The notes beneath the pieces are model-generated. The model was not told the DNA's origin. It made no database searches and saw only the letters and a program-made list of their open reading frames with translations. 64,000 nucleotides of DNA from positions 124,001 through 188,000 of the forward strand of contig NZ_JRKS01000001.1 in NCBI RefSeq assembly GCF_000763805.1, written 5' to 3'. Origin of the DNA: Paracoccus sphaerophysae (lineage in GTDB: Bacteria; Pseudomonadota; Alphaproteobacteria; Rhodobacterales; Rhodobacteraceae). Within the stretch, counting starts at the first letter, position 1. Each line of letters opens with the position of its first letter. Of this stretch, positions 36,901-55,186 are shown piece by piece. The translations under genes were made by a program, and so were the position numbers.

Positions 36901-38244
36901 TCAGACGCCGATCTTGGCGTCGTCCTCGGGCCCCAGCGGGCGGGTGTCGCCGGTGACCTGGCCGCCGCGACGGCGCTTGGGATGCTGGCGGGGCGCCGAG
37001 CCCGCATGTTCGTCCATGAAGTCCAGCACCAGCGGCCGGATGTTCAGCCGCCAGCTTTTCCCCGCGAAGATGCCGTAATGGCCGGCGCCCGGTTCCAGAT
37101 GCTGGGCCTTGCGGTCGTCCGAGACCCCGGTGCACAGGTTCAGCGCCGCGACGCACTGGCCGGGGGCCGAGATGTCGTCATTGGCGCCCTCGACGGTCAT
37201 CACCGCGACGTCCTTGATCTTGCCGATGTCGATCGGCTTGCCGTCGATCGAGAAGCGGTTCTGGGCGATTTCCAGGTTCTTGAAGATGCGTTCGACGGTG
37301 GACAGGTAGAATTCCGCCGTCATGTCCATGACGGCCAGGTATTCGTCATAGAACATGTTGTGCTTGTCGCCTTCGGACCCGGCACCGGTGGCCTCGGCTA
37401 AGATCTTGTCGACGAAGGCCTTGCGATGGGTGTCGGCGTTCATGGCGATGAAGGAGGAGAGCTGCGCCAGTCCCGGATAGACCATCCGCCCGGCGCCGCG
37501 ATACTTGAAGCCGACCTGCTGGATGACGAGATGCTCGAGCTCGCCCATCGTCACCCGGTTGCCGAAATCGGTCACCTCGGTGGCCGCCGCGTCCGGGTCG
37601 ATGGGACCGCCGATCAGGGTCAGGGTGCGAGGCTGGGCGGCGGGGTTGTCCTCGGCCAGGATCGCCGTCGCGGCCAGCGTCAGCGGCGCGGGCTGGCAGA
37701 CAGCGATGACGTGAAGGTCCGGGCCCAGATGGGTCATGAAGTCGGTCAGGTAGCGGGTATAGTCCTCGACGTCGAACTTGCCCTCGCTGACCGGGATGTC
37801 GCGGGCATTGTGCCAGTCGGTCACCCAGACGTCGCAATCGGGCAAGAGCGAGGTCACCGTCGAGCGCAGCAGCGTCGCATAATGGCCCGACATCGGCGCC
37901 ACCAGCAGCACCCGCCGCTCCATCGGCTCGCGCCGGGCGACGCGGAAGCGGACCAGATCGCCGAAGGGGCGTTCCAGTTCCGGTTCGACATAGACGAGGT
38001 GGTCCTGCCCCTCGGCCCCCGGGATCGGCGGGATTTCCCAGTCCGGCTTGATGACCATGCGCGCAAAGCTGCGTTCGGTCACCCGGCCCCAGGCGGACAG
38101 CATCTTGAACATCGGCGAGGGCACCAGCGCGAAGATCGGGTAGGACGCGATCGCGCGCGCCGAGGCCCCCATCCATTCGTTCGTGTTCCGGATGGTTTCC
38201 ATCGCATCATACGAGACGATGCCACGGTATCCCTTGTAAGCCAT
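36901..38244 (-). CDS. phaZ: Intracellular polyhydroxyalkanoate depolymerase
   Basis: This 447-residue enzyme degrades stored PHA granules. It starts MAYKGYRGIVSYDAMETIRN. Features of the PhaZ intracellular family include VTDWHNARDIPVSEGKFDVEDY, the nucleophile region HVIAVCQPAPLTLAA with a catalytic Cys in place of Ser, and the late GAGHYGIFAGKSWR with the catalytic His. It is divergent from phaC; the 102-bp intergenic region must hold both promoters. Confidence 0.94.
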   Translation of the reverse strand: MAYKGYRGIVSYDAMETIRNTNEWMGASARAIASYPIFALVPSPMFKMLSAWGRVTERSFARMVIKPDWEIPPIPGAEGQDHLVYVEPELERPFGDLVRFRVARREPMERRVLLVAPMSGHYATLLRSTVTSLLPDCDVWVTDWHNARDIPVSEGKFDVEDYTRYLTDFMTHLGPDLHVIAVCQPAPLTLAATAILAEDNPAAQPRTLTLIGGPIDPDAAATEVTDFGNRVTMGELEHLVIQQVGFKYRGAGRMVYPGLAQLSSFIAMNADTHRKAFVDKILAEATGAGSEGDKHNMFYDEYLAVMDMTAEFYLSTVERIFKNLEIAQNRFSIDGKPIDIGKIKDVAVMTVEGANDDISAPGQCVAALNLCTGVSDDRKAQHLEPGAGHYGIFAGKSWRLNIRPLVLDFMDEHAGSAPRQHPKRRRGGQVTGDTRPLGPEDDAKIGV

Positions 38245-38346
38245 GACCGCACTTCCCTTCCCAAACACCTGTGACGTGCAAAGTCTGGTTTACGACTTTC
38301 GTCAACCGGGATTTAATGGACATCAGGGTATGGAGGATCTTTTGTC

Positions 38347-40695
38347 ATGGCAAGAAAGCGGAACGACAGGGCGGCAAGAGGCAAGACGGCGGGAGGCAGG
38401 GCCGGGAACCCGGCCGGGGCCGCTGCGGCCGACAAGGAGGCAGAGGCCGCTTCTGCCGCGAAGACCGCCAAGCCCGGCGCTGGCCGCACCGGTCCGACGT
38501 CAGCCTCCGAGGCCGCAGGGGCCGCCGGGACGCCGGGGCGCAGTTCAGCGAGTACCCAGACTCACCATGCCGAGACGGCCAGCGGAAGCAGGCCAGAGCG
38601 TCAGGGCATCGCGCGTGCGGCCATACCAGCGGCGAACGGCGCTTCGGCTGCGACCGCTGCGCCCGCGGCGCGGACGGCTTCGTCGGGCGGCGAGGGAAAG
38701 GCTGGCGGCGAACCCGCGCGCAGACCCGCTCAGGCGGGTGGGGGCGCGACCGACGCTGCGCGCCCCGCCGCCGAGCGGACTGCTGACCGGGCCGCCGCCC
38801 GGGCCGCGTCCGCCGCCGGATCGCCGCAGGCCGCGCCGAAGTCCCCCGCCGCGAATCCGCCCTCCTCGAGCCCCGCGGCCTCGGATCAAGCCGCGCCCAA
38901 GGCCGCACCACGCGCTGCCGACGAGGGCTCCAACCCCTTCGCGCTGGCCGAGCTTCCCGCGCGCCTGGCCGAGAACATCGAGCGGATCGAGACGCTGGGC
39001 CAGCGCCTGCTGTTCGCGATGGCGGCCAAGCCGGTGCGCAGCCCCGGGGTCGAGGGACCGGGACCGGAACTCTATGGCTCGGTGGCGCAGGCCTGGCTGA
39101 AGCTTGCCACCGAACAGCCGGCGCGGCTGATCGAACAGCAGGTCCGGTTCTGGGGCCAGACGCTGCGCCATGTGGCCGCCGCGCAGGGGGCCTTTGCGCG
39201 CAACCTCTCGGCGCCCGACACCGAGGCGCCCGACGATCGGCGCTTCAAGAACCCGCTGTGGCAGACCAACCCGTTCTACAGCTTCGTGATGAAACAGTAT
39301 CAGATCAACGCCGACGCCCTGCGCCGCGCCGCCGCCGATCTGGAGATCGAGGACGACGTCGATCGCCGCCGCATCGAATGGTTCACCCGCCAGATGATCG
39401 ACATGCTGGCGCCCACGAACTTCCTTGCCACCAACCCCGACGCGCTGGAAAAGGCCATCGAGACCGAGGGCGAAAGCCTGGTCCGGGGCCTGGAGAACCT
39501 CGTCCGCGACGTCGAATCCGGCCATGGCGAACTGGTCGTCTCGCTGTCGGACCGCGACGCGTTCCGGGTCGGCGAGAACATCGGCACCACCCCGGGCGAG
39601 GTCGTCTATCGCACCGACATGCTGGAACTGATCCAGTTCCACCCGACCACTGACAAGGTCCACCGCACGCCGATCATCGTGTTCCCGCCGTGGATCAACA
39701 AATACTACATCATGGACCTGAAACCGCAGAACAGCCTGCTGCGCTGGATCGTGGACCAGGGCTACACGCTGTTCGTGGTGTCGTGGAAGAACCCGGACGC
39801 CAGCCACGCCGACCTGGCGATGGATGACTATGTCGCGGCCTATCTGGACGTGATCGGCAAGGCGCTTGAACTGACCGAAGAGCCGCAGCTGAACGCCGTC
39901 GGCTACTGCATCGCCGGCACCACCCTGTCGGCGACCCTGGCGCTGATGAACCAGCGTGGCGACGACCGGGTGAAATCGGCTACCTTCTTCACCACCCTGA
40001 CGGATTTTTCCGATCAGGGCGAGTTCATGACTTTCCTGCAGGACGACTTCGTCGGCGGGATCGAGGACGAGGTCGAACGAACCGGCTATCTTTCGGCGCA
40101 GCTGATGCAGCGCACCTTCAGCTTCCTGCGTGCCAACGACCTGGTCTGGGGGCCGGCGATCCGCAGCTACATGCTGGGCGAGGCGCCTCCGGCCTTTGAC
40201 CTGCTCTACTGGAACGGGGACGGTACCAACCTGCCCGGCAAGATGGTCAAGCAGTATCTGCGCGACCTGTGCCAGGCGAACGCCTTGGCCGAGGGCGGGT
40301 TCGAGATCCTCGGCCACAAGGTCCATCTGTCCGAGGTGACCCTGCCGCTGTGTGCCGTGGCCTGCGAAAGCGATCACATCGCACCGTGGCTGCATAGCTG
40401 GACCGGCGTCAAACAGATGGGCTCGCGCGACAAGACGTTCCTGCTGTCGGAATCCGGCCACATCGCCGGGATCATCAACCCGCCGACCAAGGTCAAGTAC
40501 GGCCACTACACCTCGGATATGGGGTTCGACGGGACGGCGCAGGACTGGCGCGAGGGCGGCACGTTCCACCAGGGCAGCTGGTGGGGCCACTGGGAGGAAT
40601 GGCTGTCCGGCCGTTCCGGCGAGATGATCGCCGCCCGCGCGCCATCGGTATCGCTGGCGCCCGCGCCCGGGACCTACGTGCTGGAAAAGGCCTGA
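38347..40695 (+). CDS. phaC: Class I polyhydroxyalkanoate synthase with long N-terminal extension
   Basis: This 782-residue enzyme polymerises (R)-3-hydroxyacyl-CoA into PHA. The catalytic domain has the lipase-like box GYCIAG with Cys521, Asp676 in CESDHIAPW and His705 in ESGHIAGII; the spacing matches class I synthases such as the Ralstonia enzyme (Cys319, Asp480, His508). The first about 190 residues are an Ala/Gly/Pro/Lys/Arg-rich low-complexity tract not normally present at this length. A GGAGG element 10 bases before the ATG supports this start. phaP and phaR follow on the same strand. Confidence 0.94.
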   Translation: MARKRNDRAARGKTAGGRAGNPAGAAAADKEAEAASAAKTAKPGAGRTGPTSASEAAGAAGTPGRSSASTQTHHAETASGSRPERQGIARAAIPAANGASAATAAPAARTASSGGEGKAGGEPARRPAQAGGGATDAARPAAERTADRAAARAASAAGSPQAAPKSPAANPPSSSPAASDQAAPKAAPRAADEGSNPFALAELPARLAENIERIETLGQRLLFAMAAKPVRSPGVEGPGPELYGSVAQAWLKLATEQPARLIEQQVRFWGQTLRHVAAAQGAFARNLSAPDTEAPDDRRFKNPLWQTNPFYSFVMKQYQINADALRRAAADLEIEDDVDRRRIEWFTRQMIDMLAPTNFLATNPDALEKAIETEGESLVRGLENLVRDVESGHGELVVSLSDRDAFRVGENIGTTPGEVVYRTDMLELIQFHPTTDKVHRTPIIVFPPWINKYYIMDLKPQNSLLRWIVDQGYTLFVVSWKNPDASHADLAMDDYVAAYLDVIGKALELTEEPQLNAVGYCIAGTTLSATLALMNQRGDDRVKSATFFTTLTDFSDQGEFMTFLQDDFVGGIEDEVERTGYLSAQLMQRTFSFLRANDLVWGPAIRSYMLGEAPPAFDLLYWNGDGTNLPGKMVKQYLRDLCQANALAEGGFEILGHKVHLSEVTLPLCAVACESDHIAPWLHSWTGVKQMGSRDKTFLLSESGHIAGIINPPTKVKYGHYTSDMGFDGTAQDWREGGTFHQGSWWGHWEEWLSGRSGEMIAARAPSVSLAPAPGTYVLEKA

Positions 40696-40738
40696 GCGGG
40701 CAGGGGGGCGTCCTACCGTCGCCCCTCGTCACAACAAA

Positions 40739-40791
40739 ATGCTGCGCTGCAGCATAAGCCTCTTGAAATGCTGCGCTGCAGCATGTATCTT
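40739..40791 (+). promoter_or_regulatory. phaP promoter with two PhaR-type operators
   Basis: The 17-mer ATGCTGCGCTGCAGCAT occurs twice, at 40739-40755 and 40768-40784 (29-bp centre spacing), each with ATGCTG/CAGCAT arms. A -35 TTGAAA (40763-40768) and -10 TATCTT (40786-40791) are 17 bp apart, so the second copy fills the spacer. P. denitrificans PhaR is known to bind TGC-rich CTGC-N3-4-GCAG-type sites before phaP; the repression geometry here is inference. Confidence 0.85.
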
Positions 40792-40835
40792 GCTTTCAGA
40801 AGACAGACTCACACCGCCGCAGATGGAGAGATACC

Positions 40836-41309
40836 ATGGCCAAGACCCCCGATTTCACCAAAGGCTTCCAGGACATGATGCAGAACCTCCCGGTCGACAC
40901 CTCGTCGATGACCGAGGCGTTCAAGACCCAGTCGCAGCTGGGTGAGAAGATGACCCGCGTGGCCCTGTCGGCCGCCGAGCGTTCGACCGAGATCTCGGCC
41001 GCCTGGGCCAAGGACACCATCGCCCGCATGGGCGAGCTGGCGACCTCGAAGGAACAACCGGCCGACTATGCCAAGGCGATGTCCGACTTCGCGTCGGCCG
41101 CTGCCGAGCTGGCTGCCGAGCACATGTCGGCCTATGCCGAAGTCGCCAAGAAGGTGCAGATGGAAACCGTCGACCTGCTGATGAACGCCGGCAAGAGCGC
41201 CCAGGGCGACATGCAGCGCATGGCCGACAACGTTGCCCGCAACGTCCAGGACGCGACCCGCAAGGTTCAGGACGCCGCGGCCGACGTCGCCGGCAAGACC
41301 CAGGGCTGA
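40836..41309 (+). CDS. phaP: Phasin
   Basis: This 157-residue amphipathic protein coats PHA granules. It begins MAKTPDFTKGFQDMMQNLPV and is predicted almost fully helical, with Ala/Lys/Glu heptad-like content through VQMETVDLLMNAGKSAQGDM and VQDATRKVQDAAADVAG, as in phasin_2 family members. A GAGAG element precedes the ATG. Its own promoter with PhaR sites suggests induction when PHA granules titrate PhaR. Confidence 0.92.
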   Translation: MAKTPDFTKGFQDMMQNLPVDTSSMTEAFKTQSQLGEKMTRVALSAAERSTEISAAWAKDTIARMGELATSKEQPADYAKAMSDFASAAAELAAEHMSAYAEVAKKVQMETVDLLMNAGKSAQGDMQRMADNVARNVQDATRKVQDAAADVAGKTQG

Positions 41310-41353
41310 TCGCCCGCACCGCCCGTCCCCTGCGGACGGGTCGTGACCGCAAC

Positions 41354-41385
41354 GCGCGCGTCCCCCCCGGGGCGTGCGCTTTTTT
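41354..41385 (+). terminator. Rho-independent terminator of phaP
   Basis: An 11-bp stem with two G-T pairs (41354-41364 with 41369-41379) and a CCCC loop is followed by TTTTTT at 41380-41385. It lies 45 bases after the phaP stop, separating phaP from phaR. Confidence 0.85.
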
Positions 41386-41415
41386 CTTTGCAATCGCAGG
41401 CGCCCGCGGTCATCA

Positions 41416-41431
41416 TGCTGCAAACGCAGCA
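41416..41431 (+). promoter_or_regulatory. PhaR-type operator before phaR (autoregulation)
   Basis: Perfect inverted repeat TGCTGC-AAAC-GCAGCA, matching the CTGC-N4-GCAG PhaR recognition pattern. It ends 12 bases before the phaR ATG, so bound protein would block transcription or ribosome access. Autoregulation by PhaR is known in P. denitrificans. Confidence 0.82.
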
Positions 41432-41443
41432 GGCGCGATCCAG

Positions 41444-42094
41444 ATGACCTCCGATACCGACCAGCCCGCCGACCGGCCCTTGCTGATCAAGCGCTATGCC
41501 AGCCGCCGGCTCTACAACACCGAAACCAGCGACTACGTGACCCTGGACGAGATCGCCCGCGTGATCCGCGAGGGGCGCGAGGTTCGCATCGTCGATCTGC
41601 GCTCGGGCGACGATCTGACCCGGCAATATCTGCTGCAGATCATCGCCGAACACGAAAGCCGGGGCGAGAACGTGCTGCCGGTGGACGTGCTGACCGACCT
41701 GGTCCGCAGCTATACCGCCCAGGCGCAGTCGGTGGTGCCGCAGTTCCTGGCCGCGAGCTTCGAGATGCTGCGCGACGGGCAGTCCAAGATGCTGGAGCAG
41801 CTGTCGAGCCTGCAGCACCCGATGGCCTCGATGCCCGGCTTTGCCGAGATGCAGCGCCAGCAGCGCGCCTTCCTGCGCGCCATGATGGGCGGGTGGAGCG
41901 GATCCAGCCCCGCCCCTGACGAGGAGGAAGCCGCCGCCCCGGCCGTCGCGCCCACGGCGATTGCGCGCGGGCGCGACCCCGGTAACGGGGCTGCGGGCAG
42001 GGGGGCGGACAAGGGCAAGGCCGCGTCCGGGTCGGAAGCCGAGGAAATCCGCCGCGAACTCGCCGCCTTGCAGGCCCGCATCTCGCGCCTCTGA
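41444..42094 (+). CDS. phaR: Polyhydroxyalkanoate synthesis repressor
   Basis: This 216-residue regulator has the PHB/PHA accumulation regulator DNA-binding domain near the N-terminus (LLIKRYASRRLYNTETSDYV through RIVDLRSGDDLTRQYLLQII) and a granule-binding helical region (LVRSYTAQAQSVVPQFLAASFEML). The C-terminal 60 residues are Ala/Gly/Pro-rich and end in a coiled-coil-like EEIRRELAALQARISRL. PhaR represses phaP and itself and is released when it binds PHA. It is the last gene of the pha locus before tRNA-Ser. Confidence 0.95.
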   Translation: MTSDTDQPADRPLLIKRYASRRLYNTETSDYVTLDEIARVIREGREVRIVDLRSGDDLTRQYLLQIIAEHESRGENVLPVDVLTDLVRSYTAQAQSVVPQFLAASFEMLRDGQSKMLEQLSSLQHPMASMPGFAEMQRQQRAFLRAMMGGWSGSSPAPDEEEAAAPAVAPTAIARGRDPGNGAAGRGADKGKAASGSEAEEIRRELAALQARISRL

Positions 42095-42159: not shown

Positions 42160-42249
42160 GGACGGTTGGCCGAGTGGTCGAAGGCGCACGCCTGGAAAGT
42201 GTGTAGGCGGGGAACCGTCTCGAGGGTTCGAATCCCTCACCGTCCGCCA
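42160..42249 (+). tRNA. tRNA-Ser (anticodon GGA)
   Basis: A 90-nt tRNA with acceptor arms GGACGGT (42160-42166) and ACCGTCC (42239-42245), discriminator G and encoded CCA (42247-42249). The anticodon loop CTGGAAAGT gives GGA. A long variable arm follows, and the T arm is GAGGGTTCGAATCCCTC. Acquired DNA begins shortly after it. Confidence 0.97.
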
Positions 42250-42275
42250 TTTGCCCCCGCGAAAGCGTTCTCCCG

Positions 42276-42895: not shown

Positions 42896-44116
42896 ATGCC
42901 AAAGCTTTCCCTGATCAAACCTCTCGATCAACCTCCGGGCACACGTCGACTCCTCGATGATCTTAAGACCTGCCTCGGCAGCGCTGAGTTTTCCGAATTC
43001 CGTCTGATTGTAGCATACGCGAAAAGCGGCCCACTGCTTCGGCTGGAAAGTCTTCTCCAGGCGTGGAAGGCCGCCGGAAAAAGCACAGCCGCCATCCTTG
43101 GCATCGATCAGAAGGGAACTAGCAAAGAAGCTCTCGAACTCGCTCTCGCATTGTTCGATGAGGTCTATATCACTCAGGAGGCCGGTATCACTTTTCACCC
43201 GAAGATATACTTGTTTAAAGGAGCCAGTGCGGCGAGGGCCTTCATCGGATCCAACAACCTTACTGTGGGAGGGACGGAGAAGAATTTCGAATCAGCTATA
43301 GATCTTGAACTGAATCTTCCTACTGACGGACCAGTTCTATCTGCCATTGAGGCCGCCTGGACCGAGCTATTACCGCTTTCGTGTCCGGCGACGACGAAGC
43401 TAGACTCTGCTGTGTTGGCAGGTCTCATCTCTTCAGGCCGTGTGATCGATGAAAAGACCATGCGCAAATCCGGCAACGGAAGCTCTGATACAGCTGCCGT
43501 TGGAAGAGCAACCAGCGCCTCGCGATCTGGTTTGATAGTCAAGCCGGAGAGCGCGCTACCAAAGCCGGTCGCCGCAAAGGTTGGAGCAAAAAAGAAGACA
43601 TTCACTACAGCGCCATCGATCACCACCGGTCTTGCCGCAACCAGTCCAACGCCAGTCCGCGGCCTGGCAATCCAAATCAAGCCACATCACAATGGTGAGA
43701 TATTTCTCAGCGTATCTGCTGCACTACAAAACCCTGCTTTCTTCAAGTGGCCGTTCACCGGGAAGACAACTCCTAAGAAGGTTGGAAATCCCTCTTACCC
43801 TCAACTCGATCCCGATCCTGTCATAGATCTGGTCGTATTGGGCGCGTCTCCTACGCCTGCCCTGACGCTAAGCAAGTACGCTCTGAACACCGTCTTCTAT
43901 GAAACAAAGAAAGAAATAAGGGTAACGGCATCTCCACTTGTAGGCGTTGTGCCAGACTATTCTGTGATGGTAATGGAGCAATCTAAAAACCCTCAACTCG
44001 ATTACGAAATTACAGTTTATAGGCCAGATAGCCCCGACTACCCCTTGTGGGAGGCCGCATGCAATCAGACCATGCCAGGCGGCGGAAAGAAGCCTAGGAA
44101 ATTTGGTTGGTTCTAG
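42896..44116 (+). CDS. PLD-superfamily (HKD) restriction endonuclease, BfiI-like
   Basis: This 406-residue protein begins MPKLSLIKPLDQPPGTRRLL; longer in-frame readings enter unrelated GC-rich sequence. The N-terminal half carries one PLD motif: His101-x-Lys103 (TFHPKIYLF), Asn120/121 (IGSNNLTVGG) and Glu132 (NFESAI). Metal-independent BfiI-type enzymes use one H-x-K...N...E motif per subunit, with the same His-to-Asn (+20) and His-to-Glu (+31) distances as I recall for BfiI. The C-terminal half (from about residue 230) is separate, with FFKWPFTGKT, and may be the target-recognition domain. It faces a twin methyltransferase gene. Codon use is visibly AT-richer than the chromosome. Confidence 0.75.
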   Translation: MPKLSLIKPLDQPPGTRRLLDDLKTCLGSAEFSEFRLIVAYAKSGPLLRLESLLQAWKAAGKSTAAILGIDQKGTSKEALELALALFDEVYITQEAGITFHPKIYLFKGASAARAFIGSNNLTVGGTEKNFESAIDLELNLPTDGPVLSAIEAAWTELLPLSCPATTKLDSAVLAGLISSGRVIDEKTMRKSGNGSSDTAAVGRATSASRSGLIVKPESALPKPVAAKVGAKKKTFTTAPSITTGLAATSPTPVRGLAIQIKPHHNGEIFLSVSAALQNPAFFKWPFTGKTTPKKVGNPSYPQLDPDPVIDLVVLGASPTPALTLSKYALNTVFYETKKEIRVTASPLVGVVPDYSVMVMEQSKNPQLDYEITVYRPDSPDYPLWEAACNQTMPGGGKKPRKFGWF

Positions 44117-47031
44117 GGCCGTTCAAAAACCAGAATCTGGTTTTCTGTTATTGCATTATGGATATGCTTATAGTTCTCCGTCGTAACGTCGATGTCGATT
44201 GCCTCCAAGAACCTAAAACCCGCCTCTTGGGCAATTTTAGATATGTTCGCACACGTATTGATCTTCACCCAGTTTCCGCCGGCGTTTGTGCGGCTGTCGC
44301 CAACAACGTAGAAGGCACGCGCTCCCGGCCGCATGACACCGTGCATGCTTTCGAGGTTTTCTTTCATGTGGACGTAGTAGCGCCAAAGCAGCGCCGGCAT
44401 ATTCGCTCTTCTAAAACCGACGTCGATCTTGCTGTTTTCCCTAAGGATAAATCGCACCTCAGAGACCACGTCCTTTGGAAGTATGGAATAGGCTTCCTTG
44501 TCGTCCATGAGCGTGGCTTCGAACGTGTCGCGTTCAGACTTCCGGATCTCACGAGAGCCTGTAAGGTTTTCCTCCAGAGTCGACCGAATCTTCGACGGAA
44601 TACCCATGATCGCAAGGAGCGAGAGACGGTCGGTATCAATGTACGGAAGCGCCGTGGCGTAGGGTGGGCTAGTCACAACAGCGTCCACGCTCTGACGCTC
44701 CAAGCCCAAGAGCTTAGCGGTATGGGGCGCCCGAGAGTCGCCCTCCACAACCCTAGGTTCGATCATATCGCCGGGCTGGCGCCCTGCGACAGCCCAATAC
44801 TTCTGAAGACGAGAGTGCCCGTACGTGAGACGATCTGCAAACAATTCGAATACGGGAGCATCTTCTAGGGGCGCTTTGCGCCGTCGGATGCGCAGATCGC
44901 TTGGATCCTGCTGCGAAACGTCTCTGACTACGCTGCTGAGCGTGACCTCCAAAAAATCAACAATAGTCGGATTCCCGAGCAATCTGATCTGCGCCAGAAG
45001 CCAGTTCAGCTTGAAGAGTACCTTCTCTGGAAACCAATCATGTAGCTCACGATGTAGATCATTCGAAAACTGATCCAGTGAGAGATCATATCCAGTGCCT
45101 CGCAGGACAACGCGATCCAGAACTGATCGGATGGCATGATCAACAATGTGACGTGGAAGAGTGAGTATTCCGGTCTTGGCTTTTGCAATCTTAGCAGCGA
45201 GCGGGTTGAAATCGCACCCATACCCAGCGAAGCCGTTCAACATTGCCTCAACGAGCGTCGTTCCAGACCCGCAATAAGGGTCAAGAATTCTTCCTCCTAC
45301 GGGGACGCCGGAGATGTTTAGTAGACTCTTAGCGAGCTGTGGATAAAACTTACCCTTATATGCGTGCAGGCCGTGAGTTCCATATTTGGGATCCTTGCGC
45401 TTAGAGGGATCAGCATCGCCGTTCTCTAGAACTTTCTGCCAGGTGGACTCACGCCGATCTGGATCTCCGACCACCGAATAGTCACGGGTGAAAGCCAGCC
45501 TGCGAAGATTCCAGTAATCTGGATTTGCCACCTTTAGTCGGATCTCACCGCCGGCTTCACGCGCATCTATTTTCGCGTTGGTCAGGGCCGTTATTTCTCT
45601 AGCGCGAAGCTCAACCTCATAGTTCCACATCTTGTAGGCGGGTGCCCCAAGCGAGACGACAACTTCATGATTGGGCTTCTGCAGGACAACCAACTGCTCA
45701 AGCCGCGCACGACGTGCCGGTTTAGCAAAGGAGCGTTTTGTTGTGTGAATTGGACGATCAACCGTCCCAACCACGCGCAATCCAGCCGCCTCAGCGGCCT
45801 CAGCAATCGCGGATGCGGTCGAGAAGCTTTCGCCTTTAAATAGTGCGTCGCCAACGACGAATACAGCAAAACGCCCCGGGGCTAGCGCATAAGCACAGCC
45901 CGAGAGGACTTTGACCATGTCCTCATGATACTCTTCGAAGCCAGAGTTATTCCTTTGGTGCCTGAGATGTGATCCGATCTCAATTTGACCGAGCTTTCGT
46001 GGATCAAATCCAAGCCAAAACAACCGAAATCGATGGTAGAGATGGTAATCTGTCGCATTGGGGTAAGGCGGTGATGTAACAATAAGATCTACAGAACATT
46101 CAGCAATGCTGCGCTGGAGGTCCGCGCGGCTGTCACCAATTACAAATTCTGCATCTGCATACTGAAGCTCTGCCGCAGCATTATCCAGCCGCCTCATGGC
46201 TGTGCGCAAAGATTCCAAATACGCTCGAAGGCATACCTTGAATGAGACGTTCTTCTTTACTGAAACGTATCTGGTCTCTGACTCCTGGTTGGAAACACGC
46301 AAAATGATCCGAGAAAGTGCCAGCAGGGCAGCGTCCCTAGACAGATCCCTTGTCGTCGTATCAATCAAATGTCTGAGGAGGCAGAGAGCTGCCTGTGCTT
46401 CTACATCGAACCATTTTTCTATGTTGGGGATTTCGGGGCAGTATTTGCCATGCCGTTCCAGCACGGATGGCCATTGAGCCTCAACCTCGCCGTCAGGGCC
46501 CACCAACCGGCTTTCTACCGCAGCAGCTAGTTGCTCAAGATCTGCGCGGATGGATGGCGTCATGTAGCCAGTCTTCACCCGTCCTATAAGCGCGGAGAGG
46601 GGGTTCGCGTCGATTGAAGTTGCTCTCCGTCCTAGGCGTACGGCTTCAACTGCAGTGGTGGCACTTCCACCGAAAGGATCAAACACTCTATCCCCCGGCA
46701 TTGAGAGCCGTGCGATGAGGTGTGCCGGGATTTGTGGAATAAACTTCGCAGGATATGGATGCAGATCATGTGTGAGGTAACGAGTATCGTCGTCAGTGAA
46801 TGCCCAGTCTTGTGAAGACAGGCTCGACATGACTGCTTCGACGTCGTTCAGTTCGTCAGGCCGCACGAGTGCGTGCTGTGTGGCATCGGATGCGTGATTA
46901 ACGCTTGGAATCGTTGTCCGCAGTTGCTCTTCAAACCACTCAGCAAGTGTCGCTCCCTGCAGCGATGCAGCCTCCAAGACGGCGGTCTTCTTCTGATCGG
47001 AAGTTTCAACAATGATCCGTGAGCGCGACAT
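44113..47031 (-). CDS. Fused tandem DNA methyltransferase (two TSPPY domains)
   Basis: This 972-residue protein holds two complete amino-methyltransferase domains. Domain 1 has the SAM-binding DPFGGSATT at residues 118-126 and TSPPY at 319-323. Domain 2 has DPYCGSGTT at 584-592 and TSPPY at 787-791. TSPPY is typical of N4-cytosine enzymes, though some N6-adenine enzymes share it. Motif I precedes motif IV in both. I chose the ATG at 47031 (MSRSRIIVETS) since AAAGG precedes it; a TTG 18 codons upstream is weaker. Two activities in one chain would suit an asymmetric site. The stop overlaps the nuclease stop in a shared CTAG. Confidence 0.85.
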   Translation of the reverse strand: MSRSRIIVETSDQKKTAVLEAASLQGATLAEWFEEQLRTTIPSVNHASDATQHALVRPDELNDVEAVMSSLSSQDWAFTDDDTRYLTHDLHPYPAKFIPQIPAHLIARLSMPGDRVFDPFGGSATTAVEAVRLGRRATSIDANPLSALIGRVKTGYMTPSIRADLEQLAAAVESRLVGPDGEVEAQWPSVLERHGKYCPEIPNIEKWFDVEAQAALCLLRHLIDTTTRDLSRDAALLALSRIILRVSNQESETRYVSVKKNVSFKVCLRAYLESLRTAMRRLDNAAAELQYADAEFVIGDSRADLQRSIAECSVDLIVTSPPYPNATDYHLYHRFRLFWLGFDPRKLGQIEIGSHLRHQRNNSGFEEYHEDMVKVLSGCAYALAPGRFAVFVVGDALFKGESFSTASAIAEAAEAAGLRVVGTVDRPIHTTKRSFAKPARRARLEQLVVLQKPNHEVVVSLGAPAYKMWNYEVELRAREITALTNAKIDAREAGGEIRLKVANPDYWNLRRLAFTRDYSVVGDPDRRESTWQKVLENGDADPSKRKDPKYGTHGLHAYKGKFYPQLAKSLLNISGVPVGGRILDPYCGSGTTLVEAMLNGFAGYGCDFNPLAAKIAKAKTGILTLPRHIVDHAIRSVLDRVVLRGTGYDLSLDQFSNDLHRELHDWFPEKVLFKLNWLLAQIRLLGNPTIVDFLEVTLSSVVRDVSQQDPSDLRIRRRKAPLEDAPVFELFADRLTYGHSRLQKYWAVAGRQPGDMIEPRVVEGDSRAPHTAKLLGLERQSVDAVVTSPPYATALPYIDTDRLSLLAIMGIPSKIRSTLEENLTGSREIRKSERDTFEATLMDDKEAYSILPKDVVSEVRFILRENSKIDVGFRRANMPALLWRYYVHMKENLESMHGVMRPGARAFYVVGDSRTNAGGNWVKINTCANISKIAQEAGFRFLEAIDIDVTTENYKHIHNAITENQILVFERP

Positions 47032-47587: not shown

Positions 47588-48433
47588 GTGTTCTATTTCC
47601 ATGAGTTCCTGATAAAGCTCCAATTGGACGTCGTACATACGCGCCTCCTTCGGCATGACAGTCGCGGCTTGATGGCTTGGCGGACCGGCGGCTCTCAGAA
47701 GTTTGGATGCTTCGCCAGCTTTCAGCGTCGCAATCCATCGCCCTACGCGGAGGCGCAGCTTGCGTGCCATTTCGTTCCAGGGTCGATGCTAGCCGACGGA
47801 GATGCAACCGGCTTGTTCGTCGGGATTACACGGATCAACGATCGATGGGACTGGAATGGAGGCCGCCTACCCGCCATCCAGGATCTCGAGATCATCGAGG
47901 GCGAGCGTGACCGAAGGGACGTTGACGCATTTGATCTCGAATGGCTTGCCGCTGGCACTGCGTACACGGAACGCATCCTTGTTCGTTGGGGCCCGCCGGC
48001 TGGCGCGCGCGCTTGGTCACAATGGGCTGCGCGACGGCACAAAGAGATCCTCGAACTAAGACTTGATCGCAGGGAGCCGCCGTTCCCCGGATTCTCCAAG
48101 TTCAGGAGCCTGATCAGTGAAGTGCCCGCGCTGCCGCAAGCGTGGCGGGCTGCATTATCCTCCGTCCGAGGAGTTTATCTACTCGTTTCCGAAGGGGGTG
48201 ATCAGTATGTAGGGTCTGCTACGGGTCAGGATGGACTTCTCGGGCGGTGGATGGCCTACGTGGCAAATGGGCATGGGGGCAACGTACTGCTGCGGCAGCG
48301 CGGCCATCGAGATTACACCGTGTCGATCCTCGAGGTGGCCTCACCCGACATGGCTCGGGACGACATCCTTGCCCGTGAAGGTTTGTGGAAGGACAAACTT
48401 GGGGCCCGAGCGCACGGCTTGAACGGAAACTGA
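47588..48433 (+). CDS. GIY-YIG nuclease family protein
   Basis: This 281-residue protein starts at GTG (FYFHEFLIKLQLDVVHTRLL) with a strong GGAGG four bases upstream, which decides the start. The C-terminal GIY-YIG domain (residues 194-281) has GVY (195-197), YVG (207-209), the catalytic Arg220 in LLGRW, Glu264 in AREGLWK and a final Asn. The N-terminal 190 residues (LLRHDSRG, FQRRNPSPY, FVPGS, LFVGITRI) form a separate domain I cannot name. It may be another restriction-type nuclease of the island or a mobile-element nuclease. Its 3' end overlaps the minus-strand HTH gene. Confidence 0.78.
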   Translation: MFYFHEFLIKLQLDVVHTRLLRHDSRGLMAWRTGGSQKFGCFASFQRRNPSPYAEAQLACHFVPGSMLADGDATGLFVGITRINDRWDWNGGRLPAIQDLEIIEGERDRRDVDAFDLEWLAAGTAYTERILVRWGPPAGARAWSQWAARRHKEILELRLDRREPPFPGFSKFRSLISEVPALPQAWRAALSSVRGVYLLVSEGGDQYVGSATGQDGLLGRWMAYVANGHGGNVLLRQRGHRDYTVSILEVASPDMARDDILAREGLWKDKLGARAHGLNGN

Positions 48434-48795
48434 TCAATCCAGCCCAACGGGAACGGCTCCAGCACCTGCGCGAGCGTCACCTTAGGCCCCTGCTTCCCGT
48501 CCAGAATCGCCTCGACGATGTCCGGGGCGAGCAGGGTCAGGCGCAGGACGCGGGTCATGTATGAGGGCGCGATGCCCTCTCGCTCGGCCAGTTCGGCGAT
48601 GGTGGCGAACTCCCCAGAATCGAGCATCCTTTTCCACCGGAACGCGCGGGCCAGCGCCTTGACCAGCGCGCTGTCTGCCCGGCGCGACGGCGTGGTGCCG
48701 TCCGGCAAGTGCATCTCCTTCCGGCCGCCGCGCCTCACGACGCGGAACGGCACGTGGAGAGTAACGGTCTCGGGGATCGGCGTACTGCGGGTCAT
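48313..48795 (-). CDS. HTH protein of the recombinase module, with altered C-terminus
   Basis: This 160-residue frame is coupled to the recombinase (ATGA overlap at 48792-48795). The N-terminal 115 residues match a small protein usually found next to phage-type serine recombinases: VTLHVPFRVVRRGGRKEMHLP, then a helix-turn-helix (ATIAELAEREGIAPSYMTRVLRLTLLAP), then VTLAQVLEPFPLGW. The normal protein ends soon after the PFP-x-x-W motif. Here the frame runs 40 further residues into the antisense of the GIY-YIG gene (48313-48433), suggesting the element's end lies near 48430. Confidence 0.65.
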   Translation of the reverse strand: MTRSTPIPETVTLHVPFRVVRRGGRKEMHLPDGTTPSRRADSALVKALARAFRWKRMLDSGEFATIAELAEREGIAPSYMTRVLRLTLLAPDIVEAILDGKQGPKVTLAQVLEPFPLGWIDQFPFKPCARAPSLSFHKPSRARMSSRAMSGEATSRIDTV

Positions 48796-50117
48796 GCGGC
48801 CGCCTCTATGCCGCCAGCTAGCATCTCACGCGCGAGGCTACCGAGCCCGTCGACGCGGAGCCGGACGTTCAGGCCGTCCGTACTGATGTCGACCCGTTCA
48901 ACCAGCAGCGCCACGATGCGCGCCTGCTCGGCGGGGAAAAGTTCGTCCCACAGCGGGTCGATCTGCTGCAGGGCCGCGCGGGCGTCGGTTTCGGTGATGT
49001 CGCTGGCGTGGGCGCTCGCCGCCTTCCACGTCCCGGCCACGATCTCAGGCTGGCGGAACACGGCGCGCAGCTGGTCAATGACGGCGGCCTCCATATCCCC
49101 TGCTGGCACGCGGCCGACCGGGCACGCCCCGGCGCCGTGCTTCAGCACGGTCTGGCTGACATAATAACGGTAGAGCCTGTCGCCCTTGCGGGTGTGGGTC
49201 GGCGAGAAGGCTGCGCCATCGGGCCCAAACAGCAGCCCCTTCAGCAGCGCGGGCGTGTCGGCGCGGGTGCGCGCGGCGCGCTTGCGCGGGCTTTCCTGCA
49301 GGATGGTGTGAACCTTGTCCCATGTTTCACGGTCGATGATGGCGTCATGCTCGCCGGGATAGCTCTCCCCCTTGTGGACCGCCTCGCCGATGTAGGCGCG
49401 GTTGCTGAGCATCCGATAGATGTACTTCTTGTCGATCCTATTCCCGCGCGGGGTGCGGATGTTGCGCGTGCCGACCTCTCGCGCCAGTTCGGTGCCGGAC
49501 CCGATCTCGAGGAAGCGGGCGAAGATCCAGCGCACATGCGCGGCGCTGTCTTCGTCCACCACCAGCTTGCGGTTCTCCACCCGATAGCCGTAGGGCGGCA
49601 CACCGCCCATCCACATGCCCTTCTTGCGGCTGGCGGCGACCTTATCGCGGATGCGCTCGGCGGTGACCTCCCGCTCGAACTGGGCGAAGGACAGCAGGAT
49701 GTTTAGGGTCAGCCGCCCCATCGACGTGGTCGTGTTGAAGGACTGGGTCACCGAGACGAAGGTCACGCCGTTCCGGTCGAACACCTCGACCAGCTTGGCG
49801 AAGTCGGCGAGCGAGCGGCTGAGGCGGTCGATCTTGTAGACCACCACCACGTCGATCAGCCCGTCTTCGATGTCGGTCATCAGGCGCTTGAGAGCCGGGC
49901 GTTCCAGCGTGCCGCCGGAGATGCCGCCGTCGTCATACTGATCGCGGACAAGCACCCAGCCCTCGGAACGCTGGCTGGCGATGTAGGCCTCGCAGGCCTC
50001 CCGCTGGGCGTGGAGGCTGTTGAATTCCTGCTCCAGCCCTTCCTCGGAGGATTTTCGAGTGTAGATGGCGCACCGCAGCTTGCGGACGACCTTCAATTTT
50101 TCGGGCAGCTTCGTCAT
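48792..50117 (-). CDS. Serine recombinase (phage-type integrase/invertase family)
   Basis: This 441-residue site-specific recombinase begins MTKLPEKLKVVRKLRCAIYTRKSSEEG, with the catalytic Ser at residue 23 or 24. Conserved resolvase residues follow: YDDGGISGGTLERPALKRL, VVVYKIDRLSRSLADF and the FNTTTSMGRLTLNILLSFAQFERE helix. The recombinase domain (PPYGYR...IYRMLSNRAYIGEAVHKGE) is present. The zinc-ribbon position reads LLFGPDGAAFSPTHTRKG, with the usual Cys pair lost, and the coiled-coil arm is short, as in related Rhodobacterales enzymes. It is coupled to DUF2924 upstream and the HTH protein downstream. Confidence 0.9.
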   Translation of the reverse strand: MTKLPEKLKVVRKLRCAIYTRKSSEEGLEQEFNSLHAQREACEAYIASQRSEGWVLVRDQYDDGGISGGTLERPALKRLMTDIEDGLIDVVVVYKIDRLSRSLADFAKLVEVFDRNGVTFVSVTQSFNTTTSMGRLTLNILLSFAQFEREVTAERIRDKVAASRKKGMWMGGVPPYGYRVENRKLVVDEDSAAHVRWIFARFLEIGSGTELAREVGTRNIRTPRGNRIDKKYIYRMLSNRAYIGEAVHKGESYPGEHDAIIDRETWDKVHTILQESPRKRAARTRADTPALLKGLLFGPDGAAFSPTHTRKGDRLYRYYVSQTVLKHGAGACPVGRVPAGDMEAAVIDQLRAVFRQPEIVAGTWKAASAHASDITETDARAALQQIDPLWDELFPAEQARIVALLVERVDISTDGLNVRLRVDGLGSLAREMLAGGIEAAA

Positions 50118-50569
50118 GTCCGCCCCCTGTGGTTCTTGAGACCGAAGAAGACCCAGCCATTCCAGCGCGTGCCGGTGATGGCGCGGGCAATGGCGGAGAG
50201 CGACCTGTAGGGCCGCCCCTGCCACTCGAAGCCGTCGGCGGTGACGGTGACGATCTGTTCGACGCCCTGCCATTCGCGCAGAAGGCGCGTGCCTGTGATG
50301 GGGCGGTCGCGATCGGCGCGGATGCCGCGCTTGGATCGGTCGCCGCCGTCCAGCTCCTCGCCCAGCCGTTCCAGACGCCGTGTCGTTTCGGGCTTCAGCC
50401 CGCCATAGGCGAGTTCCTGGATGCGGTATGCCAGGCGGGACTCGAGGTAGCGGCGGTTGAACGGTGGCGGCTCGCTGTCGAACAGGTCGCGCCACTGTTT
50501 CTTCAGGTCGGGCGTCGGCGTGGTCTTGAGCGCGGCGAGGCGCGCGGGGATGGGATCGGGCTTGTTCAT
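50114..50569 (-). CDS. DUF2924 family protein
   Basis: This 151-residue protein (MNKPDPIPARLAALKTTPTP) shows the DUF2924 pattern LKKQWRDLFDSEPPPFNRRYLESRLAYRIQELAYGGL, then TGTRLLREWQGVEQIVTVTADGFEWQGRPYRSLSAIARAITGTRWNGWVFFGL. Such proteins regularly accompany phage serine recombinases; their function is unknown. A GGAG element precedes the ATG. The gene overlaps the recombinase start by four bases. Confidence 0.88.
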   Translation of the reverse strand: MNKPDPIPARLAALKTTPTPDLKKQWRDLFDSEPPPFNRRYLESRLAYRIQELAYGGLKPETTRRLERLGEELDGGDRSKRGIRADRDRPITGTRLLREWQGVEQIVTVTADGFEWQGRPYRSLSAIARAITGTRWNGWVFFGLKNHRGRT

Positions 50570-50769
50570 GCATTTCTCCGGTGAGTTGGAGTTGCATGAC
50601 GGCATTGGTCGGGCGGATAGTGTAGGCAACCTTCTCCAGTATCGTCAGATACTTCCCGCCGATCCCGCATCTTCAACCGAACCAGCCCGTGCGCCAGCAG
50701 ACCACACAGCTCGGCGCGGCGTTCGCCGGGTGTCATGAGGGAGGGTGACAGGGGATTGGGGCGCTTCAT
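50566..50769 (-). CDS. Small conserved protein of the recombinase module
   Basis: This 67-residue protein (MKRPNPLSPSLMTPGERRAE...CGLLAHGLVRLKMRD, ending HATPTHRRNA) is a recurrent first gene of the DUF2924-recombinase cluster in alphaproteobacterial prophages. No function is known. The central part looks like a short helix pair. It overlaps the DUF2924 start by four bases, so all four minus-strand genes form one unit. Confidence 0.72.
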   Translation of the reverse strand: MKRPNPLSPSLMTPGERRAELCGLLAHGLVRLKMRDRREVSDDTGEGCLHYPPDQCRHATPTHRRNA

Positions 50770-50898
50770 CTCGGGCTCACAGGCTTCTCGAAGATGAAAA
50801 GCCACCCGTGCCGGCGGATCGGGACACGGGGCACAAGATTATTTTGCGCTTTTTGCGTCTCGGGTTAGCCTTGGAAAACTCTGATCATGGAGATCTGC

Positions 50899-53061
50899 AT
50901 GGTTCGAGCGCCTGCCAAGTCCTGCCCCGCCCTCTTCCGCCTGTTCGGCGATGCTGAGGCGTCGATGATCGCCACGTTCCTGCGAATGCGGGTTTTCGAC
51001 AAACTGACCTGGCTGGTCGATTACTCCTTCGATCCGGATGAAGCGGACGGGAACGTGCCGGCCGCGGCCATGCTGCGCGAGCAGCGCAAGGAGAAGCTGT
51101 CGCCGCTCGAAACCGAGGCGGCCCGCATCGTCACCATGTCGTCAGATCGCGGCCAGTTCGCCCTCGACGGACTGGTTCGCTCCAAACTGGCGACAGAGCA
51201 GAAGCGCGAGTTCGAGGGGCAGCGCGACGCGCTGGCGCGTAGCTTGTGGGCTTATCTCAAGCAGCCGATGCTGTTCGAGGCGGCCGAGAACACCCTGCAT
51301 CTGCGGCTCTATCGCCGCTATGACCGTCACTATCAGACATTCATGGTCGAGCCTGCGGAGGACGGTGGGACTGATGTTGAACCCTCCGCGCTGCGGACAT
51401 TGCTCGAAGATCTGCGCGCGAGGCTTGACCGGGGCGACGGCTATGAGGTCGACCGGTTCGCCATTCCCCAGGACGGTGATGACCCCGCGCAGGTCATGTA
51501 CCTGGTGGTTCACCCCGAAGCTCCCACGAGCGTGCGGGAACTTCACGACGACGGGCAGCGCACGACAATGTACTTCCGCCCGCCCGGTGAAATCATGATT
51601 GTGCACACCCCGAGCACCGGGCGGGTACATGTCCGGGCCGGGACCCGAAAGCTGCGCCATGACGCGGCCGAGAGCTTCATCAGAACGGTGCTCGAGCAGG
51701 AGCCGTCGCAACAACCCGTCGATTTTCAGGCCTATGACATCGGGCGGTTCTTTGGCGGGTTCGATCTGGAGATCCCCGACTTCGAGGACGTGAGCATCCT
51801 GCGCGCCCAAGTCATCCGCGCAGACATCAGTATCGGCAACCTCGCCAGCAGGCTGTCGGTCTCGACGCCGCTGGATGAAGACATCGGACAGTTGATCAGC
51901 GATCAGCCGGGGCTCGATCGGATATTCCGCAATGCCCTCGCGATCCGGTTTGTGGAAATTGCTGTTCAGTATCGGCGGCTGGGCATGGAAGCTGAGCGCA
52001 CGCTCGACTTCACCGTCACGGACCGAAACACCACGAGCCTGCACAGCCTGGACGATCCATTCGAGCGTGTCCTCGGTCACCGCCTGCTCCGGTATTGGGG
52101 CATATTGCGTGATGGCCGGGCACCGACGCCCCGAGAGAGCATGGCGGTGCTGCCTGCATTGCTGGCGTTGTGGAATCTTGGGTCTGACCGGATCGGCGGT
52201 GCCTGGCTTTACGAACGCGGGATAGAGGTGAAGACCTTGCTGGATCTCGGGTTTCTGGTTCCCGCAGGTTGGGAGGGTGACGAACTGGTCGACGACGAGG
52301 ACGATTTCGCGGAGCATGTGGCCGCCGTCGTGGCCTACCCTGAGGGACCCGAACTGCGCTCGAGCGATGGCCAGTCCTCCGCAGCTGCGATGCCAGATCG
52401 CTACCGTGTCTATCGGGTGCGCGACGGTTGGGTCGCGGCCCACCTGCGCCACCAGCTCGGCAAGGCGCTGGACATCACAGCGATGGAGGACATCAGGCCG
52501 GATCTGGTCGCACTCGGCGCACTCGAAATCGATGGCCGGGCGGTGCCGCTGTATCTCGCGCGCAGGCTCGAAGATGAACGTATCCGCGCCGCCATCGACA
52601 CTGAGCTTCGAGCGCGGGACAAGCAGGGGATCGGCCTTGTCCTACAGGCTGGCGACCTGAAGGGCACAGCTCTCGCGGCGAACGTGCTCGCCAGGCTCAC
52701 CGATCACATTCTTCCGGAGGCGGCCGAGTTTGCTGTCGACATGATGAGCCTGACAACGGCGTTTCGTCGGAACCGGTCGCTTGCTCATGGCGGCGCGGCG
52801 GTCGAGTTCCAGAAGTCGGGCGATAGCGTGGGTGTGTTGAGCGTCCCCGGCAAGGGCACCATCGAGATCGTGGGCGCCCAGCGAGTGGTTGTTATCGATC
52901 GACTGGTTCAGGCACATCCGAGTCCCATGAAGTCGGAGGACTTGACGGCTGGCTTTGGCGATCAGTCGCTTGGCAACATTTTTGGTCAAATTCTTTGGAA
53001 TAAACTGAAGGACGGCTTCCTGCGCTCCCCGAAGCGCGGACTGTGGGAGATCGCCGTCTGA
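50899..53061 (+). CDS. Large protein of unknown function in the prophage
   Basis: This 720-residue protein begins MVRAPAKSCPALFRLFGDAE; I chose this ATG because GGAG lies six bases upstream, although an ATG four codons earlier is possible. I do not recognise the family. It is acidic, mostly soluble-looking, with no membrane segment, P-loop or obvious nuclease motif. The N-terminus resembles a helical leader (MIATFLRMRVFDKLTWLVDY), and the last 60 residues (VVIDRLVQAHPSPMKSEDL...FGQILWNKLKDGFLRSPKRGLWEI) look like a winged-helix domain. It is divergent from the recombinase module and transcribed alone, so cargo or defence roles are possible but unproven. Confidence 0.65.
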   Translation: MVRAPAKSCPALFRLFGDAEASMIATFLRMRVFDKLTWLVDYSFDPDEADGNVPAAAMLREQRKEKLSPLETEAARIVTMSSDRGQFALDGLVRSKLATEQKREFEGQRDALARSLWAYLKQPMLFEAAENTLHLRLYRRYDRHYQTFMVEPAEDGGTDVEPSALRTLLEDLRARLDRGDGYEVDRFAIPQDGDDPAQVMYLVVHPEAPTSVRELHDDGQRTTMYFRPPGEIMIVHTPSTGRVHVRAGTRKLRHDAAESFIRTVLEQEPSQQPVDFQAYDIGRFFGGFDLEIPDFEDVSILRAQVIRADISIGNLASRLSVSTPLDEDIGQLISDQPGLDRIFRNALAIRFVEIAVQYRRLGMEAERTLDFTVTDRNTTSLHSLDDPFERVLGHRLLRYWGILRDGRAPTPRESMAVLPALLALWNLGSDRIGGAWLYERGIEVKTLLDLGFLVPAGWEGDELVDDEDDFAEHVAAVVAYPEGPELRSSDGQSSAAAMPDRYRVYRVRDGWVAAHLRHQLGKALDITAMEDIRPDLVALGALEIDGRAVPLYLARRLEDERIRAAIDTELRARDKQGIGLVLQAGDLKGTALAANVLARLTDHILPEAAEFAVDMMSLTTAFRRNRSLAHGGAAVEFQKSGDSVGVLSVPGKGTIEIVGAQRVVVIDRLVQAHPSPMKSEDLTAGFGDQSLGNIFGQILWNKLKDGFLRSPKRGLWEIAV

Positions 53062-54985: not shown

Positions 54986-55186
54986 ATGACGCTGCCGCCC
55001 GTTCCGCCGCCCGATCTTCTGAAACGCCTGCCGGGATATTACCGGCGTTGGGAACTGACCGAACTGGTCATCCCGGATCGGTACTACTTCTTCGAGTCAG
55101 CGGGCCTGCACGGCGACGGTGAGCCGCTGTTTGCGGTTTATGTCCAGCCCGCCGATCTGGCGCCGGGCGAAGGGCGGCTGCAATGA
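54986..55186 (+). CDS. Small phage protein of unknown function
   Basis: This 66-residue protein (MTLPPVPPPDLLKRLPGYYR, then RWELTELVIPDRYYFFESAG, ending EGRLQ) has no family I can name. Its stop overlaps the ATG of the primase-helicase gene (55183-55186), indicating translational coupling and a shared role in the replication module. Confidence 0.65.
   Translation: MTLPPVPPPDLLKRLPGYYRRWELTELVIPDRYYFFESAGLHGDGEPLFAVYVQPADLAPGEGRLQ

What the first reader, a model, noticed from the sequence alone, without database searches (positions are those of the whole stretch)
42896..47031. BfiI-like PLD nuclease paired with a fused double methyltransferase
The nuclease has a single H-x-K...N...E PLD motif (His101, Lys103, Asn121, Glu132). 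From memory of BfiI (His105, Lys107, Asn125, Glu136) the residue distances are identical. BfiI-type enzymes are metal-independent Type IIS nucleases with a C-terminal recognition domain and need two cytosine-N4 methyltransferases because their site is asymmetric. Here two TSPPY methyltransferase domains are fused in one 972-residue chain. This predicts a compact two-gene Type IIS-like system whose fused modification protein treats both strands of an asymmetric site.
Basis: partly seen in the sequence, partly recalled or inferred. Interest (0 to 1): 0.78.

Follow-up and report, generated by a model that had tools for sequence, protein, structure and literature searches.

The report
BfiI-type restriction system, fused methylases
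Two neighbouring bacterial genes encode a DNA-cutting enzyme related to the unusual metal-free enzyme BfiI and a single large protein joining its two protective DNA-marking enzymes, a new variant of a known kind of restriction system that lies on a mobile DNA island.

Summary
The window encodes a 406-aa PLD-type nuclease (42896-44116 +), tail-to-tail with a 972-aa protein made of two DNA methyltransferase (MTase) domains (44113-47031 -). The predicted nuclease resembles BfiI in both domains: BfiI is Foldseek's top hit, and residues 250-406 match BfiI's DNA-bound recognition domain (Z 13.4). The N-half of the MTase pairs with M1, and the C-half with M2, of plasmid systems whose nucleases are close BfiI homologues. 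The 7 fused forms in the tree are one clade (100/100); 16 related systems keep M1 and M2 separate, in the same order, beside the same kind of nuclease. A congener carries the same element at the same tRNA-Ser; both MTase halves, the PLD domain and the recognition domain are under purifying selection (dN/dS 0.07-0.11). No recurrent third gene was seen, so an NgoAVII-type ATPase is not expected. The HxK...N...E spacing is shared with SauUSI, so it is not BfiI-specific. Target site, m4C chemistry, metal independence and cut position remain untested. Verdict: a BfiI-type, Type IIS-like system with fused modification enzymes.

The parts
42896..44116 (+). R: PLD-superfamily nuclease, 406 aa, BfiI-like
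   Evidence: dN/dS 0.145 against a congener
42896..43465 (+). R residues 1-190: catalytic PLD domain; HPK at 43196-43204, Asn121 at 43256-43258, Glu132 at 43289-43291
   Evidence: BfiI 2c1l, SauUSI 7clg; dN/dS 0.101
43466..43645 (+). R residues 191-250: disordered linker
   Evidence: residues 193-251 have pLDDT under 50; dN/dS 0.585
43646..44113 (+). R residues 251-406: BfiI-like (B3-type) DNA-recognition domain
   Evidence: residues 250-406 against BfiI recognition domain with DNA, 3zi5: Z 13.4, rmsd 2.7, 134 aligned; dN/dS 0.088
44113..47031 (-). M: fused double DNA methyltransferase, 972 aa
   Evidence: stop codons of R and M overlap in a shared CTAG at 44113-44116
45562..47031 (-). M residues 1-490: M1-type MTase half; motif I DPFGG at 46666-46680, TSPPY at 46063-46077
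   Evidence: 36% to Roseibium M1; PADLOC model PDLC03364; dN/dS 0.111
44116..45561 (-). M residues 491-972: M2-type MTase half; motif I DPYCGSGTT at 45256-45282, TSPPY at 44659-44673
   Evidence: 37% to Roseibium M2; PADLOC model PDLC03377; dN/dS 0.074
42160..42249 (+). tRNA-Ser (GGA): edge of the mobile island that carries the system
   Evidence: alignments to the 4 genus relatives fetched stop at 42249-42254
48792..50629 (-). Serine recombinase and DUF2924 gene of the island, the likely vehicle; not part of the R-M pair

Best explanation
This is a BfiI-type restriction-modification system in which M1 and M2 have become one polypeptide. R would dimerise through its PLD domains into one metal-independent active site (His101 forming a phospho-histidine intermediate), held on DNA by its C-terminal B3-like domain at a short asymmetric site, and would cut both strands a few bases downstream. 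The fused M would protect the host: the N-half marks one strand and the C-half the other, probably at cytosine N4, and the fusion fixes a 1:1 ratio of the two activities. Shown by computation: the domains, the pairing of the halves with M1 and M2 of BfiI-type systems, intact motifs, purifying selection, conserved tail-to-tail pairing, and island location. Inferred from BfiI: dimerisation, metal independence, asymmetric site, cut position, strand division and m4C. The system probably entered as cargo of a serine-recombinase island next to a tRNA-Ser.
For: Foldseek's top hit for R is BfiI 2c1l, E 3.7e-14; residues 250-406 match BfiI's DNA-bound recognition domain 3zi5, Z 13.4, rmsd 2.7 over 134 residues. 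The two best hits of M in the plasmid collection are M1/M2 pairs that lie beside nucleases 68-70% identical to the catalytic part of BfiI; one of them, in L102, was tested over its whole length and matches BfiI end to end, E 3.5e-145. The N-half pairs with Roseibium M1 (36%, E 2e-59) and the C-half with Roseibium M2 (37%, E 7e-80); cross-pairs are much weaker, E 1e-15 to 6e-25. PADLOC's top two models for M, one for each half, are the top models of the Methylobacterium M1 and M2. Of the 80 loci kept, 13 have a nuclease match that reaches residue 382 or beyond, and 13 of 13 have an M2-type gene or domain next door. The fused forms are one clade, 7 of 7 rows, 100/100. dN/dS is 0.111, 0.074, 0.101 and 0.088 for the M N-half, M C-half, PLD and recognition domain, against 0.585 for the linker. 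No flanking gene family (ORFs of 120 aa or more, E 1e-8) was found in more than 3 of 23 loci.
Against: R alone has almost no direct sequence similarity to BfiI: phmmer finds no BfiI hit at E up to 1, and R against the two BfiI-type nucleases gives E 0.007 and 0.26 over the PLD part in a 12-sequence comparison. The PLD domain scores higher with SauUSI, an ATP-dependent modification-requiring enzyme, in sequence profile and in Z (21.6). The two-domain BfiI match has rmsd 15.9 and the model's pTM is 0.50, so only the single domains, not their arrangement, are supported. R is convergent with M here but codirectional in the BfiI-type operons. PADLOC does not match R to its 358-aa model that fits the BfiI homologue. 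No site, methylation or cleavage data.
Confidence: 0.85

Rival explanations
1. An ATP-dependent PLD system of the NgoAVII/CglI kind: R binds an asymmetric site but needs a helicase-like N-protein to cut.
For: Pfam names R 'RE_NgoFVII', and NgoAVII R 4rct is among the structural hits (E 5e-6; Z 12.8 with rmsd 9.8). A primase/helicase-like gene lies about 8 kb beyond M at 55183-57408.
Against: No recurrent third gene in 23 loci. Those systems have one C5 MTase (PMC4267653 passages) whereas this one has two amino-MTase domains. The recognition domain matches BfiI's isolated domain directly.
Confidence: 0.06
2. R is a modification-dependent (Type IV, SauUSI-like) nuclease, and the MTase neighbour is coincidental or plays another role.
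For: The PLD domain's best sequence-profile hit and best Z are SauUSI.
Against: R has 406 aa and no Pfam match to a helicase or SRA domain; the C-domain is BfiI-like; the pairing with M1/M2-type MTases recurs in 7 fused and 16 split systems from seven named phyla.
Confidence: 0.03
3. The two halves methylate adenine (m6A), or two different or palindromic sites, rather than cytosine N4 on the two strands of one asymmetric site.
For: Pfam and PADLOC do not separate N6 from N4 enzymes here. The fused double MTase of MhoVII makes m6A on GATG/CATC (PMC12898733, abstract and passages).
Against: The halves pair with M1 and M2 of BfiI-type systems, and BfiI's two MTases modify opposite strands (PMC4267653 table note); that they are m4C enzymes is recalled, not read here.
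Confidence: 0.2

Closest known systems
BfiI / BmrI (Type IIS, ACTGGG) restriction-modification systems
   Same: PLD catalytic domain plus B3-like recognition domain in R; two MTases, M1 then M2 in the two BfiI-type operons seen, pairing with the two halves here
   Different: M1 and M2 fused in one chain; R convergent instead of codirectional; R sequence strongly diverged, so the target is probably different (inference)
NgoAVII / CglI ATP-dependent systems
   Same: R with PLD and B3-like domains
   Different: They need a DEAD-family N-protein and have a C5 MTase (PMC4267653 passages); neither was found next to R here
Fused double MTases of Type IIS systems (MhoVII; FokI, recalled)
   Same: Two MTase domains in one chain, serving (MhoVII) or expected to serve (here) the two strands of a non-palindromic site
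   Different: MhoVII makes m6A and its two parts belong to different MTase classes; here the halves are homologous to each other (27%) and to BfiI-type M1/M2
SauUSI (Type IV)
   Same: PLD domain, same HxK/N/E spacing
   Different: SauUSI has a helicase and an SRA domain and needs ATP and modified sites (PMC12707154 passage)

Membership tests
BfiI-type Type IIS R-M | N-terminal PLD domain with a single HxK...N...E motif | tested here: met
BfiI-type Type IIS R-M | C-terminal BfiI-like (B3) recognition domain | tested here: met
   predicted structure: residues 250-406 against 3zi5, Z 13.4, rmsd 2.7, 134 aligned; hhalign of the C-domain against the BfiI-type C-domain, E 7.6e-7 over 73 columns
BfiI-type Type IIS R-M | two MTases of the M1 and M2 lineages | tested here: met
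   fused instead of separate
BfiI-type Type IIS R-M | no ATPase/helicase partner | tested here: met
   no flanking family seen in more than 3 of 23 loci; several contigs end close to the system, so only part of their flanks could be seen
BfiI-type Type IIS R-M | metal-independent cleavage | not testable with these tools
   needs an assay in EDTA
BfiI-type Type IIS R-M | asymmetric site with cleavage downstream | not testable with these tools
   no cleavage or methylome data
BfiI-type Type IIS R-M | m4C, one MTase for each strand | not testable with these tools
   TSPPY in both halves is consistent; no methylation data
BfiI-type Type IIS R-M | homodimer with one shared active site | not tested
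   only a monomer was predicted
NgoAVII/CglI ATP-dependent R-M | adjacent DEAD-family N-protein gene | tested here: not met
   the neighbours scanned next to the pair show no helicase; the nearest helicase-like protein is a primase/helicase-type one at 55183-57408, about 8 kb away; no recurrent neighbour in relatives
NgoAVII/CglI ATP-dependent R-M | C5-cytosine MTase as the modification enzyme | tested here: not met
   Pfam assigns M to N6_N4_Mtase
SauUSI-like Type IV | helicase and SRA domains in the same chain | tested here: not met
   406-aa chain with PLD, linker and BfiI-like domain only
DISARM (DrmC) | DrmC-type PLD protein with DrmA/DrmB partners | tested here: inconclusive
   only a weak DrmC match of R, E 0.0029; no DrmA/DrmB among the rows shown for four proteins scanned (where M's list was cut at 25 of 66 families); other genes not scanned with PADLOC

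The most novel reading that the evidence does not exclude
One ancient BfiI-like lineage keeps a nuclease tail-to-tail with an M1/M2 module. In a single clade the module became one two-headed protein that marks both strands of an asymmetric site in one encounter. Nucleases can be exchanged between the fused and split clades (as in L043, Fermentibacterota) without disturbing the methylase, which implies a shared or co-drifting target across very distant systems.
Probability: 0.3. Interest if true: 0.55.

Novelty: new variant of a known kind. Interest (0 to 1): 0.43.

Why it matters
BfiI is the well-known exception among restriction enzymes: metal-free, with a covalent intermediate and one active site for two strands. 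A 2014 review already noted several BfiI isoschizomers and over 40 putative PLD enzymes, probably of different organisation and site (PMC4081073 passages), so the existence of more PLD enzymes is not new. What this adds is a family with two organisations, fused and split, and a clear origin for the fused MTase; it offers candidate metal-free site-specific nucleases and a single-chain two-strand methylase to test. The nuclease is easy to overlook: NCBIfam has no match and PADLOC only weak partial ones (best E 9.1e-5), though Pfam does name its PLD domain.

Tried and rejected

A frameshift or assembly-made fusion: rejected. A congener has the same 972-aa ORF at 97% identity, and five other loci carry fused forms at 44-57% identity (L016 and L100 are near-identical and counted once).

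An NgoAVII-type ATPase partner: none found beside R; a primase/helicase-like gene lies about 8 kb away.

tRNA 3'-end duplicate as the far attachment site: only the tRNA itself matches within the window at up to 3 mismatches. The far end of the island is not located: the 4 fetched relatives show no match to the window beyond the tRNA.

Fused nucleases as one clade: the nuclease tree leaves L043 outside, but one clade is not rejected (p-AU 0.38; 0.32 in a tree without four rows, L024, L069 and the two BfiI-type ones). Only the placement of L043 beside L016/L100, as in the MTase tree, is rejected, p-AU 1e-10. L043's nuclease has a long branch, so fast divergence in place is not excluded.

Phage records: no match to the nuclease. 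A viral-contig scan with the BfiI fragment found no relative. Papers: the listings of searches (titles, abstract starts) showed no BfiI-type system with fused MTases; several lists were cut and REBASE is not held, so 'unpublished' is not claimed.

Rows dropped: L097 (83% over 272 aa only, broken ORF or contig piece) and L024 (contig edge, M2 and R codirectional, no M1 in view) were left out of the MTase tree; L024 stayed in the nuclease tree and in the structure alignment. L001, L096 and L098 are the window's own locus, and some genome loci were held twice (for example L003 in L013). 67 of 101 loci with any hit have no MTase similar to this one; their nuclease matches end at residue 296 or before. 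Six further places (L003/L013, L007, L021, L063, L076, L095) show only weak, partial MTase matches and were not counted as this system.
Full report
What is there. The nuclease (R) is 42896-44116 on + (406 aa). The double methyltransferase (M) is 44113-47031 on - (972 aa). Their stop codons overlap in a shared CTAG. The pair lies in a stretch of about 53% G+C between flanks of roughly 63-68%, shortly after a tRNA-Ser. The 4 genus relatives fetched align through the upstream genes and the tRNA and stop at 42249-42254. A full-length nuclease match occurs in 1 of 385 genomes of the class, the window's own (5 of 385 with any match), and in 2 of 61 of the genus, own included. The second genus genome (L119) has the same element at the same tRNA-Ser, with M 97% identical over 972 aa and R 96%.

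Nuclease. Pfam RE_NgoFVII is above its gathering score. A profile of 11 homologues hits SauUSI (3.2e-14), BfiI (3.6e-9) and NgoAVII (2.9e-4) in the PDB. The AlphaFold2 model from 22 sequences has mean pLDDT 82 with a disordered linker at 193-251 and pTM 0.50, so the relative placing of the two domains is not reliable. Foldseek ranks BfiI first, E 3.7e-14. VIA-align gives SauUSI Z 21.6 (PLD part), BfiI Z 18.4 (both domains, 290 residues, rmsd 15.9, which fits unfixed domain placing), and for residues 250-406 BfiI's recognition domain with cognate DNA, Z 13.4, rmsd 2.7 over 134 residues. BfiI's C-terminal half is described as B3-like in PMC4081073 (passages). Profile comparison links the C-domains independently, E 7.6e-7 over 73 columns.

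Methyltransferase. Both halves have motif I and TSPPY, invariant in the 7 aligned fused sequences. The model (pLDDT 77) shows MTase folds in both halves. In the plasmid collection the two best M hits are the M1/M2 pairs of Methylobacterium indicum and Roseibium aggregatum. Beside each lies a nuclease whose catalytic part is 68-70% identical to BfiI; the Methylobacterium one matches BfiI end to end, E 3.5e-145. The N-half pairs with M1 and the C-half with M2, in the same order. PADLOC's models PDLC03364 and PDLC03377 are the top models of the Methylobacterium M1 and M2 and the top two for M, at residues 80-470 and 483-989 of the 990-aa form.

Family. One scan of genome contigs (best 80 of 280 confirmed relatives kept), scans of viral contigs, plasmids and class genomes gave loci compared. 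Fused, convergent systems: the window, Kosakonia (L016), Chitinispirillaceae (L017), Alishewanella (L018), Fermentibacteria (L043) and two IMG/VR contigs (L099, L100). Split, convergent systems: 16 loci, from Pseudomonadota, Acidobacteriota, Bacteroidota, Chloroflexota and Gemmatimonadota, one of them an IMG/VR contig; M1 and M2 overlap by 4 bases in 8 of the 16 and by 1 base in a ninth. The 7 fused and 16 split systems are tail-to-tail with R, from 32 bases apart to 10 overlapping. The tree, unrooted, puts the fused rows in one clade (100/100) and the split rows together (98/99), with BfiI-type pairs outside. As BfiI-type pairs are also split, split is the likely older state and fusion happened once; the joining branches are long, and the program warned of this.

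Nuclease exchange. L043's MTase is sister to L016/L100 (100/100), but its nuclease is nearer the split type: 31% to L022, L025 and L045, against 24-26% to L016, L099, L100 and the window over 397-429 columns (L017 and L018 align over only 185 and 208 columns, at 31 and 25%). Held beside L016/L100 it is rejected (p-AU 1e-10); held with all fused nucleases it is not (p 0.38).

Constraint. Between the window and L119, dN/dS is 0.111 (M N-half), 0.074 (M C-half), 0.101 (PLD), 0.088 (recognition domain) and 0.585 (linker) (Nei-Gojobori counts, one pair, 126 and 57 nucleotide differences in M and R). The four functional parts are kept; the linker much less so.

Mobility. The split systems L101 and L062 lie beside a serine recombinase/DUF2924 module 76-90% identical to the window's, so the same kind of island carries either form. 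Fused systems in Kosakonia, L099, L100 and Alishewanella lie beside tyrosine integrases.

Mechanism and limits. From BfiI literature (PMC4081073 passages; PMC4267653 passages): a homodimer with one metal-free active site, a covalent phospho-histidine step, cuts downstream of an asymmetric site, and two MTases for opposite strands. These are carried over by homology. Nothing here measures a target, a mark or a cut. MhoVII shows that fused MTases can serve the two strands of a non-palindromic site (PMC12898733, abstract and passages).

Noticed in passing
window 47591-48433 +: GIY-YIG-like protein matching PADLOC UzuA (E 5.8e-62, profile positions 3-278 of 278): a second candidate defence gene in the same island, with a similar ORF in L119. 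The GIY-YIG label is from reading the translation; Pfam gives no match.
   Followed up: partly
window 48313-50629 -; L101, L062: Small ORF, serine recombinase and DUF2924 module shared at 76-90% identity with two loci that carry the split form of the same R-M system: one island type with exchangeable cargo.
   Followed up: partly
L043:149-4285: Fused-clade MTase with a nuclease that does not follow the MTase tree: apparent nuclease exchange.
   Followed up: yes
window 44116-45561 -: The M2-type half resembles archaeal Trm11 tRNA methyltransferases in fold (Z 21.1, 246 residues, rmsd 3.0), and M matches Pfam UPF0020 there: an unexpected relation for a DNA MTase.
   Followed up: no
window 50887-53061 +; 55183-57408 +: A 724-aa protein without a Pfam match (phrog_37634 of unknown function) and a primase/helicase-like protein: probable further island genes.
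   Followed up: no
L007, L009, L010, L013 and others: Nucleases that match this one only through the PLD half lie beside other MTases, suggesting a larger, varied set of PLD restriction enzymes.
   Followed up: no
window 36901-42094: Genes that read like a polyhydroxyalkanoate locus (depolymerase, synthase, phasin, PhaR) upstream of the tRNA; labels are recalled from reading the translations, not searched.
   Followed up: no
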